Shown here piece by piece: positions 20,988 through 23,748 of a DNA stretch of 64,000 bases. The position numbers and the translations under genes are program-made. Positions within the stretch are counted from its first letter, which is position 1; each line of letters starts with the position of its first letter. The DNA comes from Oscillospiraceae bacterium (GTDB lineage Bacteria > Bacillota > Clostridia > Oscillospirales > Oscillospiraceae), in the NCBI GenBank assembly GCA_015067945.1, contig SVLM01000001.1:62001-126000 (forward strand), given 5' to 3'. The notes beneath the pieces are model-generated. The model was not told the origin of the DNA. It saw only the letters and a program-made list of their open reading frames with translations, and did no database searches.

Positions 20988-21608
20988 TTATTTAAATAAA
21001 TCCAACAGTTCATCAGTTGTTCTGACAATTTCTGCTCCGGCCTCCTTCATTTCTGTGATGTCGCCATAACCCCATGTTACAGCAACTGGCTGCAGCAGAT
21101 TCTCCTTCGCACCAACTACATCGAAAATTGTGTCGCCGACCATAACACCGCCTGGACCGCTGCGGTCAAGCAGAAAAGCGATCACATCTTCCTTTTTACT
21201 GCGGCTATCATCGGCGGTCGCACCGCAGATGATCTCAAAGTATTGAGCAAGCTCAAAATGCTCCAAAATCTCGATGGCCATATGCTCCGGTTTGGAGGTA
21301 GCTACAAACAGCCGATGCCCTCGGGACTTCAACCCATCCAGCAATTCGCGGATACCGGGGTAGGGGAAATTCTCAAACTTGCCAAGGGTAACATACCGTT
21401 TCCGATACACGGCAATAGCTTCATCCACCCGATCCACCGGAACACCGAATTTGGGGAAAGAATCCCGCAGGGGAGGACCTACAAACACCCGCAGGGCGTT
21501 ACGTTCCGGAATTGGTAAACCGAAGTGTTCCAACGCAGCAATGGCACAGTTGATGATGCCCTCACCGGAGTCGGTTAATGTGCCGTCTAGGTCGAATAGG
21601 ATGTTCAT
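20988..21608 (-). CDS. HAD-family hydrolase, phosphoglycolate-phosphatase-like
   Basis: 206 residues with the HAD motifs: FDLDGTLTDS at residues 5-14 (nucleophile and acid/base aspartates), VATSKPE (motif II), a lysine in SRSKKEDV (motif III) and MVGDTIFDVVGAKEN (motif IV). The cap domain lies between motifs I and II. It is closest in layout to the Gph/PgmB group, which dephosphorylates small metabolites. The exact substrate is not deducible. Confidence 0.88.
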   Translation of the reverse strand: MNILFDLDGTLTDSGEGIINCAIAALEHFGLPIPERNALRVFVGPPLRDSFPKFGVPVDRVDEAIAVYRKRYVTLGKFENFPYPGIRELLDGLKSRGHRLFVATSKPEHMAIEILEHFELAQYFEIICGATADDSRSKKEDVIAFLLDRSGPGGVMVGDTIFDVVGAKENLLQPVAVTWGYGDITEMKEAGAEIVRTTDELLDLFK

Positions 21609-21729
21609 ACACCACTGTCCTTTCTCTGTTTAGGTTAGTATAGCATAGAGCAGTAATTTTCGCAACCGAAGTAATGCTTTTTGGAAAGGCAGAATATAAT
21701 TGCAGCCTATCTCGTTTAAGACTGAACTC

Positions 21730-21944
21730 ACGAAAAGTGAAATTGTTCACTACACTCACGGTGAGATTATTTCCCTGCGGAAATTGTGATATTTATTGCT
21801 AACACGTCAAGTGAAATCAAATCCACCCACCGCCTCAGCGATTTCACACGCCGAAGGCGTATTTTATATTGCGTAGCAATATTTCACTCACCCGAAGGGT
21901 GAATTTTGTTGCAAAACCGACTTGTCGAAACAAGTCGGTTTTGC
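21730..21944. repeat. Array of mini-hairpins separated by ATTTCAC words
   Basis: This gene-free stretch holds five small perfect hairpins: ATTTCC-ctgc-GGAAAT, ACGCC-gaa-GGCGT, ATATTGC-gta-GCAATAT, TCACCC-gaa-GGGTGA and GCAAAACCGACTTG-tcgaaa-CAAGTCGGTTTTGC. Between them the word ATTTCAC (or GTGAAAT) recurs four times. The last hairpin would also act as a terminator. It looks like a dispersed non-coding repeat element; the rest of 21610-22055 shows nothing else. Confidence 0.6.
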
Positions 21945-22055
21945 TGGAAAGGTGGCATAAATCAACCACCCTACGCATATTGGATTGAACTCACGAGAAT
22001 CAATTTTTAAACTGCGCCTTACTGCGGTTTTGTCCATACATTCTCTACGCTCTGA

Positions 22056-23078
22056 TCACGGTTTCTTCTCTGGTTCTCTTGTTGTTTTATCCAGTGCAGC
22101 GATCATTTGTTCCTCGAAGTTCGTAGCATTTGCTCTTACCGCATGAATATCATTAATTATCTTTCCAACTGTACCATCAAATATCTCGTTATCCAAGCAA
22201 ACATTGATGATCTTCTTTTCAAATGCATCTGCCGTTATAATCTCTATTTTAACATCCTCGGATTTGACCGAGTTTGCCGATGTAAAAACAATTAAATTTT
22301 TTGAAGATTTGATTTTTTCACGCAAAACCTTGCGCCAATTATCTCCACCTCGAATTCCGGTGTCGTACCACAACCGGAACCCGATCCGCTGTAAAATATG
22401 GAGTTTTTCCTCAACTTTTGTTTTATCTCTATGCGAATAACTGACAAAAATATAATCGTCGGGGCCAACATAGGGAAGTGCAACTTTTCGTTGGGAATTC
22501 AGTTTGACTTCAATGCTTCTGGCACGTTCAATAATCCCGTCAAGTTGCAGCAAAAGATTCTTTTCGTTAAATACCGAATCCTCTCCACCGTACAAAACAA
22601 TATTATCAAAAAGATTGGGATTATCTACATAAACATGCTTCAATGTTCTGCCGGTTGTCAGCCGTTGCTGGCGGCAAGATTCATCATAGCAAAGTGTTAC
22701 ATTTTCAAGAGTGGCATCGTCTATATACACATAAATCAGGGTAACGTAATTTCCGTAATCGGCTTTCAAGTTTTTCAAAAAATCAATATCCGAGCAAGCA
22801 ACCGATGTAAAAATATCTTCCGCACCGTTTGCAGCCCTCTCAAAATCCTTTTTATTAAACCCTACCAAACGATTGTTTACCAGGTACGAGTAGTCACACT
22901 GACTCTGAATTTCATCCGGTGTGGAAAACACAGAAAATCCGTCCGCTGAAATCGACGTGATATCCTCTTCGCTGCTGGAATAATAGATTTTTTCCATACG
23001 TTTGAATCCGCTGGCATCAAAATGAGAACGAACCCTCCGTCCGATTTCTCCCGTAAGTCCATACAAAACAATAAACAT
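22056..23078 (-). CDS. TIR-domain protein with a guanylate-kinase-like N-terminal region
   Basis: 340 residues. The C-terminal part (about 205-325) is a TIR domain: YIFVSYSHRD, FRLWYDTGIRGGDNW, then SANSVKSEDVKIEI, which contains a glutamate in the place of the NADase catalytic residue. The N-terminal part (about 1-190) begins FIVLYGLTGEIGRRV and its overall pattern recalls guanylate kinase, but the P-loop lacks GK[S/T], so it is more likely a sensor than a kinase (inference). Bacterial TIR proteins often act in phage defence by depleting NAD. The gene is visibly AT-rich, stands alone, and lies beside tRNA genes and a repeat array, suggesting acquisition by transfer. Confidence 0.75.
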   Translation of the reverse strand: MFIVLYGLTGEIGRRVRSHFDASGFKRMEKIYYSSSEEDITSISADGFSVFSTPDEIQSQCDYSYLVNNRLVGFNKKDFERAANGAEDIFTSVACSDIDFLKNLKADYGNYVTLIYVYIDDATLENVTLCYDESCRQQRLTTGRTLKHVYVDNPNLFDNIVLYGGEDSVFNEKNLLLQLDGIIERARSIEVKLNSQRKVALPYVGPDDYIFVSYSHRDKTKVEEKLHILQRIGFRLWYDTGIRGGDNWRKVLREKIKSSKNLIVFTSANSVKSEDVKIEIITADAFEKKIINVCLDNEIFDGTVGKIINDIHAVRANATNFEEQMIAALDKTTREPEKKP

Positions 23079-23341
23079 ATCCGCCGCCCAGCCTTTCTTT
23101 CCGAAAAATTACTATAATAACTATGACTTTTAAACCGTTTGTTCTTTTATACTACAATAAAAATCAACTATTTGCAATAGGTTTTGAAAATAATATCCGT
23201 TATTCCCAAAAACAGGATGTGCGTCTTCTGTTGAACTTGTTATTGCTTTTGCAAGGCTCAATCTCTCCCAACCCGAATGCTATATTTTAAGCCAAAACAC
23301 ATAAAAGGTAGCATCAAATGGCGGCCTCTTCGAATTCCATG

Positions 23342-23387
23342 CCGCCAATAAAAAGACCAGCCTTATGGCTGGTCTTTTTATTGGCGG
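23342..23387 (-). terminator. tRNA operon terminator extended into a 21-bp perfect palindrome
   Basis: CCGCCAATAAAAAGACCAGCC, loop TTAT, and its exact complement. On the minus strand it terminates the tRNA-Arg/tRNA-Ser transcript. The outer bases copy the encoded GCCA end and the first two acceptor bases of tRNA-Ser. Confidence 0.85.
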
Positions 23388-23470
23388 AGAGAGTGGGATT
23401 CGAACCCACGGTGGGTTGCCCCATCACCAGTTTTCAAGACTGGCTCCTTAAACCGCTCGGACATCTCTCC
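23382..23470 (-). tRNA. tRNA-Ser(TGA)
   Basis: The minus strand gives a 7-bp acceptor (GGAGAGA/TCTCTCC), a long variable arm, the T-loop GGTTCGAATCC, discriminator G and encoded CCA. The anticodon loop CTTGAAA gives TGA, reading UCA. Its T-arm translates to the well-known false peptide ERVGFEPT in the track. Confidence 0.95.
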
Positions 23471-23476
23471 GTTCAT

Positions 23477-23553
23477 TGGCACACCAGAAGGAATTCGAAT
23501 CCCCGACCTTCCGCTTAGGAGGCGGACGCTCTATCCTGCTGAGCTACTGGTGC
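23477..23553 (-). tRNA. tRNA-Arg(CCT)
   Basis: The minus strand gives acceptor GCACCAG/CTGGTGT (first pair G-U), anticodon loop CTCCTAA (anticodon CCT, reading AGG), T-loop GATTCGAATTC and encoded CCA. It is 6 bp upstream of tRNA-Ser, in the same transcript. Confidence 0.93.
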
Positions 23554-23667
23554 ATATTCCGCTCGGTTATTGTAACGAAAAAAAGTCGTTCTGTCAACAA
23601 AAACAGATAGATTATTTTCCGTTATCAACATATACTGTCCGGTAGATGATGAAGAGGAGGATAAAAT

Positions 23668-23748
23668 ATGGAAGAAAAGAATGAAAGAGCTACAGATATT
23701 GATGATCTGATCTTTGGTGAGGAAGAATCCGGGCCAAGTCAGCGGTGA
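23668..23748 (+). CDS. Possible 26-residue acidic micro-protein
   Basis: AGGAGG lies 7 bp before an ATG that opens a 26-codon frame ending in TGA (starts EEKNERATDIDDLIFGEE). It is highly acidic, with no membrane segment. It is too short for the ORF track. The ideal ribosome site is the only support; it could also be chance, and it precedes the prfB promoter. Confidence 0.4.
   Translation: MEEKNERATDIDDLIFGEEESGPSQR

What the first reader, a model, noticed from the sequence alone, without database searches (positions are those of the whole stretch)
22056..23078. Lone TIR protein with a degenerate guanylate-kinase-like N-terminus, a candidate defence gene
A clear TIR domain with a glutamate at the NADase position is fused to an N-terminal region that looks like a P-loop kinase without the GK[S/T] motif. 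The gene is AT-rich against its surroundings, has no operon partner, and lies between a repeat array and tRNA-Ser/Arg genes, a common island location.
Basis: partly seen in the sequence, partly recalled or inferred. Interest (0 to 1): 0.7.

Follow-up and report, generated by a model that had tools for sequence, protein, structure and literature searches.

The report
Pseudo-guanylate-kinase fused to TIR domain
This is a stand-alone bacterial gene, recently acquired by its host, that joins a catalytically broken guanylate-kinase-shaped domain to a TIR domain with an intact NAD-cleaving glutamate; it is most likely a one-protein phage alarm whose sensor half was built from a metabolic enzyme.

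Summary
ORF 22056-23078(-) (340 aa) has a clear TIR domain (Pfam TIR_2, E 4e-16) with an invariant glutamate, E279, in the NADase register. The N-terminal ~195 residues take a guanylate kinase (GK) fold: two AlphaFold models, of this protein and of a 32% identical homologue, each return GMP kinases as their best PDB matches (best E 2.7e-7 and 1.2e-7). The P-loop is one residue longer than normal and degenerate.

Six full-length homologues define a rare family, found in 3 of 95 genomes of the genus and both genomes sampled of another. A distant relative, in G684, has the same pairing as two adjacent genes: a GK-like protein with an intact P-loop, then, 5 bp later, a TIR protein.

The gene looks recently acquired: the closest relative, G022, has an empty site; GC3 is 38% against 53-65% for neighbours. 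It is under purifying selection (dN/dS 0.14). It is not in a defence island, and the 'repeat array' is not a tandem array.

Best reading: a single-gene TIR NADase triggered through a pseudo-GK sensor, working like SpbK. Folds are predicted; trigger, NAD cleavage and defence are inferred.

The parts
22056..23078 (-). GK-like/TIR fusion gene, 340 aa
   Evidence: ORF; start and full length conserved in six homologues; dN/dS 0.14 against L001
22491..23078 (-). residues 1-196: guanylate-kinase-fold domain
   Evidence: AlphaFold pLDDT 83.8, Foldseek best PDB hits are guanylate kinases, E 2.7e-7; repeated with homologue L008, pLDDT 86.7, E 1.2e-7
23034..23060 (-). residues 7-15 GLTGEIGRR: degenerate, one-residue-longer P-loop (R14 at the position of the P-loop Lys)
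   Evidence: alignment A4 with the intact GASGAGKT of L042
22893..22895 (-). D62, aligns with the acidic residue of the guanine pocket (Glu69 in yeast GK, from memory); D/E in six of seven homologues
   Evidence: gapless match CDYSYLVNNRLVGF / LEYSYEFNGEWYGI in A4
22128..22451 (-). residues 210-317: TIR domain
   Evidence: Pfam TIR_2 E 4.1e-16, ThsB_TIR E 1.5e-5; SPARTA and SARM1 TIRs among Foldseek hits
22242..22244 (-). E279, putative NADase catalytic glutamate (codon GAG)
   Evidence: invariant in seven homologues; aligned with AbTIR Glu
21632..23325 (.). about 1.7 kb present here and absent from the orthologous HAD-tRNA-prfB site of closest relative G022
   Evidence: blastn of 21501-23700 against L064: homology ends about 21608-21631 and resumes at 23326
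23382..23553 (-). tRNA-Ser(tga) and tRNA-Arg(cct) upstream of the gene, same strand
   Evidence: ARAGORN

Best explanation
A single-gene TIR effector with an enzyme-derived sensor. The N-terminal guanylate-kinase fold has lost a canonical P-loop and most of the GMP-phosphate-binding arginines, so it should no longer phosphorylate GMP. It is used as a binding platform, most likely for a phage-derived protein, less likely for a guanine nucleotide. Ligand binding clusters the C-terminal TIR domains, which then cleave NAD+ through E279 and stop growth of the infected cell. Supported by computation: both folds, conservation of E279, degeneration of the P-loop, purifying selection, recent insertion. 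Inferred: loss of kinase activity, ligand, clustering, NAD cleavage, anti-phage role.
For: GK fold in two models whose top PDB hits are GMP kinases and whose top viral hit is a phage GMP kinase. TIR residues F211, S213, Y214, D218, W237, Y238, D239, G245, N247, W248, S267, E279 invariant in all seven proteins, whose TIRs are down to 35% identical. Same domain pair as adjacent genes in G684, where the TIR protein matches the PADLOC TIR-TM model at E 3e-23. Accessory-gene behaviour: empty site in G022, atypical GC3, 3 of 95 genomes in the genus, 77% identity to L001 while its neighbour PepF is 57% identical to this genome's PepF. The N-domain diverges faster than the TIR in 20 of 21 pairwise comparisons, as expected of a sensor. 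Precedents: SpbK, a lone protein with an N-terminal sensor and C-terminal TIR NADase, triggered by a phage portal (PMC12847820); MAGUK GK domains, where the former GMP site became a phosphoprotein-binding site and ATP and GMP are no longer bound (PMC3335814).
Against: No defence genes beside it or beside the tested homologues. No homologue in 50,697 phage or 72,556 plasmid records beyond the TIR part, and none in viral contigs. Profile-profile comparison with 19 GMP kinases was not significant (hhalign probability 1%), so homology to GK rests on predicted fold plus the L042 bridge. TIR domains in bacteria are not all NADases and not all defence proteins. The ligand is unknown.
Confidence: 0.5

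Rival explanations
1. The pseudo-GK domain senses a small guanine nucleotide (GMP, dGMP or (p)ppGpp) rather than a protein. A change in the nucleotide pool, caused by phage DNA metabolism or the stringent response, releases the TIR NADase.
For: An acidic residue at the guanine-pocket position is kept in six of seven homologues and the Gly of the YG motif is invariant. One Foldseek hit for the homologue model is a GK regulated by (p)ppGpp (4qrh). The G684 pair keeps an intact P-loop and TTRxPR GMP-phosphate motif beside a TIR gene.
Against: The TTRxPR arginines and the Tyr of YG are not conserved in the fusion family, so GMP-phosphate binding in the canonical way is unlikely. MAGUK GK domains show that such a pocket can be reused for protein.
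Confidence: 0.22
2. A housekeeping or regulatory TIR protein of these Clostridia, unrelated to phage: the GK-like part is a scaffold and the TIR acts in NAD-RNA decapping or in NAD homeostasis.
For: Neighbours are housekeeping genes; the host genome carries several other TIR proteins, including TIR-MORN; TIR proteins can decap NAD-RNA (abstract of PMC10937652).
Against: Sporadic presence (3 of 95 genomes), insertion relative to G022, and foreign base composition argue for a dispensable accessory gene.
Confidence: 0.18
3. Part of a split Thoeris-like signalling system: the TIR makes a cyclic ADP-ribose signal that activates an effector encoded elsewhere in the genome.
For: The TIR part matches ThsB models (Pfam ThsB_TIR E 1.5e-5, PADLOC ThsB E 1.9e-8) and, weakly, NCBIfam ThcB4 (E 0.0045; E 3.3e-6 in homologue L008).
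Against: No effector gene recognised next to it here, and none evident in the ORFs of the G011, G031, G109 or L001 loci. Matches cover the TIR only and the ThcB4 scores are far below its cut-off of 220.
Confidence: 0.1

Closest known systems
SpbK (Bacillus subtilis ICEBs1), single-gene TIR NADase defence
   Same: Lone gene; N-terminal sensor domain plus C-terminal TIR with catalytic Glu; accessory gene
   Different: SpbK sensor is a 94-residue four-helix bundle that binds the phage portal (PMC12847820); here the N-domain is a ~195-residue GK fold. SpbK is on an integrative element; no element found here
Guanylate kinase (Gmk; Pfam PF00625)
   Same: Fold of residues 1-196; Gly of YG, acidic residue of guanine pocket, conserved RL and LFD segments in matching order
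   Different: No Pfam Guanylate_kin match; P-loop longer and degenerate; TTRxPR motif lost; TIR appended
MAGUK GK domain (Dlg, PSD-95, PALS1)
   Same: A GK fold that lost catalysis and serves as interaction module; PALS1 appears among Foldseek hits
   Different: Eukaryotic, within a PDZ/SH3 scaffold protein, keeps the GMP-pocket residues; no TIR
Swarozyc (DUF4062 TIR-like NADase)
   Same: TIR-like NADase defence protein with an auxiliary domain, acting with the phage portal (PMC13174449)
   Different: DUF4062 TIR-like family; guanylate kinase is not mentioned in that paper
Thoeris ThsB / ThcB
   Same: TIR subfamily resemblance
   Different: No effector gene in the locus

Membership tests
TIR domain proteins (PF13676) | TIR domain above curated cut-off | tested here: met
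   60 bits against cut-off 28
TIR NADases | catalytic glutamate conserved | tested here: met
   E279 invariant in seven homologues and aligned with AbTIR Glu
TIR NADases | NAD+ cleavage | not testable with these tools
   needs biochemistry
Guanylate kinase enzymes | GK fold | tested here: met
   Foldseek E 2.7e-7 and 1.2e-7 on predicted models
Guanylate kinase enzymes | P-loop GxxGxGK[ST] and TTRxPR GMP site | tested here: not met
   GLTGEIGRR and KIYYSSS at these places; PF00625 not reported for the protein
SpbK-type defence | SpbK N-terminal four-helix bundle | tested here: not met
   N-domain is a GK-like alpha/beta fold; SpbK bundle as described in PMC12847820
SpbK-type defence | activation by phage portal | not testable with these tools
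   needs infection and binding assays
Thoeris | TIR protein with an effector gene in one operon | tested here: not met
   no operon partner; nearest protein-coding genes are housekeeping
Defence-island gene | proximity to known defence genes | tested here: not met
   PADLOC on ten window neighbours gave only an Nth-like glycosylase (as REase_II) and a CoaX cross-match; tested neighbours of homologues gave none

The most novel reading that the evidence does not exclude
A previously undescribed GK-TIR defence family in which a nucleotide-kinase fold is the infection sensor. It occurs as a pseudo-GK-TIR fusion and as a two-gene form with a P-loop-intact GK. The pseudo-GK may act as a decoy or receptor for a phage component that targets or mimics guanylate kinase.
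Probability: 0.25. Interest if true: 0.72.

Novelty: new variant of a known kind. Interest (0 to 1): 0.55.

Why it matters
Few triggers of lone TIR effectors are known, and those cited here (SpbK, Swarozyc) are phage portal proteins. A sensor built from a nucleotide kinase would tie TIR immunity to guanine-nucleotide metabolism, or show that bacteria, like animals with MAGUKs, turned guanylate kinase into a recognition domain. The open question (what the domain binds) is directly testable with one 340-residue protein.

Tried and rejected
hhalign of the N-domain profile against 19 GMP kinases: not significant (probability 1.1%), though the best of five targets and in a plausible register. PDB sequence search with the N-domain profile: nothing. 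Weak PF00625 hit near the TIR cluster on contig 12: it is an ABC transporter gene. Phage and plasmid hits to the L042 kinase: regions were fetched for seven; only the two annotated ones were read, no TIR named there; not pursued. Two further TIR relatives of the L042 TIR (L093, L094) have no GK neighbour, so the two-gene pairing is seen once only. N-domain search in viral contigs: no relative. Paper searches for a GK-TIR system: none found in the open-access library; subscription papers are not covered. The L042 hit has E 3.3e-4 per genome over 401 genomes, so on its own it is borderline; it is the clear best non-family ORF of 1143 (E 2.5e-5, next 0.12) and is itself a GK beside a TIR.

Full report
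Observation. The ORF at 22056-23078 on the minus strand is real: 340 codons, same start and same two-domain layout in six homologues, dN/dS 0.14 against the closest homologue, 0.16 in the N-domain and 0.11 in the TIR. It therefore codes a maintained protein, not a chance frame.

TIR half. Pfam TIR_2 covers residues 210-317 at E 4.1e-16, with ThsB_TIR at E 1.5e-5; PADLOC gives ThsB and other TIR effectors. The motifs YIF.SY, WYD.GI, G.NW and E279 are kept in all seven sequences. In the phmmer alignment E279 sits on the Glu of AbTIR. NADase competence is thus likely but not shown.

N-terminal half. No Pfam family is reported for residues 1-200 and the PDB sequence search finds none. AlphaFold with the seven-sequence alignment gave pLDDT 83.8; Foldseek returned guanylate kinases as the best hits (7u5f, E 2.7e-7, TM 0.68 by target) together with SPARTA and SARM1 TIRs for the other half. 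A second model, of the 32% identical homologue L008, reached pLDDT 86.7 and pTM 0.78 and again returned guanylate kinases first, E 1.2e-7, with MAGUK GK domains further down. Viral structures give a phage GMP kinase first. The two models share the same family alignment, so they are not fully independent.

The catalytic sites are lost. In alignment A4 the GASGAGKT of the G684 kinase faces GLTGEIGRR here: one residue longer, with Arg where the P-loop Lys belongs. Five homologues keep a Lys at that column, L001 has His, and only L008 has Thr after it. The TTRxPR segment that holds the GMP phosphate in the enzyme is KIYYSSS here. The acidic residue of the guanine pocket is kept as D or E in six of seven, and the Gly of YG in all. 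The assignment of enzyme residue roles is from general knowledge of yeast guanylate kinase. Hence a pseudo-enzyme is the fair reading; residual nucleotide binding is possible.

Separate link between GK and TIR. The N-domain profile found one distant match outside the fusion family: G684, E 3.3e-4. The hit is a 194-aa protein with intact GASGAGKT and TTRKPR (Pfam Guanylate_kin E 2.7e-7; NCBIfam guanyl_kin E 2.8e-11 but far below cut-off). The next gene, 5 bp downstream on the same strand, is a TIR protein, PADLOC TIR-TM E 3e-23. In a pool of 1143 ORFs the kinase is the only significant non-family match. Two further relatives of that TIR lack a GK neighbour, so the pairing is seen once.

Distribution and mobility. 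The fusion is found in 3 of 95 genomes of the genus, in both genomes held of another genus, g47, with two tandem copies in one, in a goat rumen MAG contig (L001, 77% identical), and, apart from the window's own genome, in none of 399 genomes drawn from the phylum. In G022, whose PrfB is 95% identical, the HAD gene and the tRNA-Ser/Arg pair are separated by about 150 bp with no TIR gene; here the interval holds about 1.7 kb more. Insertion here or loss in G022 cannot be told apart by this pair alone; base composition favours insertion. No tRNA-derived direct repeat marks an att site in the repeat list. GC3 is 38% against 53-65% for neighbours; the G011 and G031 copies are GC-rich like their contigs (GC3 74% and 77%), so those are probably older residents. 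L001 is 77% identical while its PepF neighbour is 57% identical to the PepF of this genome, consistent with horizontal transfer.

Neighbourhood. Genes around the window copy are housekeeping: M23 peptidase, phosphoesterase, CoaX, HAD hydrolase, prfB, M20 peptidase, MatE, Nth, SSB, radical SAM. PADLOC finds no credible defence gene among ten of them, nor among the tested neighbours of homologues. The 'defence island' cue therefore fails on this small sample, as it could for single-gene systems spread one by one.

How it most likely works. By analogy with SpbK, where an N-terminal domain docks on the phage portal and clusters TIR domains into active NADases (PMC12847820), the pseudo-GK domain is the receptor. 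MAGUK GK domains show the route: the old GMP site became a phosphoprotein site, with ATP and GMP binding lost (PMC3335814). The faster divergence of the N-domain in 20 of 21 pairs fits a sensor. The exception, L023 against the second G109 copy (N 87%, TIR 69%), together with L023 against the first copy (N 48%, TIR 76%), suggests that tandem copies have exchanged domains. Nothing here shows the ligand, NAD cleavage or phage protection.

Novelty. No paper found in the open-access library describes a GK-TIR protein. It is a new variant of a known kind: a lone TIR effector with a new type of sensor.

Noticed in passing
L029 7422-8771(-) and 10070-10978(-) (host genome contig 12): Two more TIR proteins close together, one with a long run of MORN repeats after the TIR, lying near two ABC transporter genes and a metallophosphoesterase.
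   Followed up: partly
L033 7144-9135 (G109): Tandem GK-TIR copies; compared with L023, one copy is closer in the N-domain (87%) and the other in the TIR (76%), which suggests domain exchange between copies.
   Followed up: partly
L042 1524-3289 (G684): GK-like kinase with intact P-loop followed 5 bp later by a TIR protein with an uncharacterised C-terminal half; a possible two-gene version of the system.
   Followed up: partly
L001: Rumen MAG contig filed as Desulfovibrionaceae; its PepF is 55-61% identical to PepF of sixteen genomes of this genus, so the contig may be wrongly binned.
   Followed up: partly
window 21911-21944: Perfect 15-nt inverted repeat (hairpin) inside a stretch of short GTGAAAT-type repeats downstream of the gene, within the inserted segment; function unknown.
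   Followed up: no
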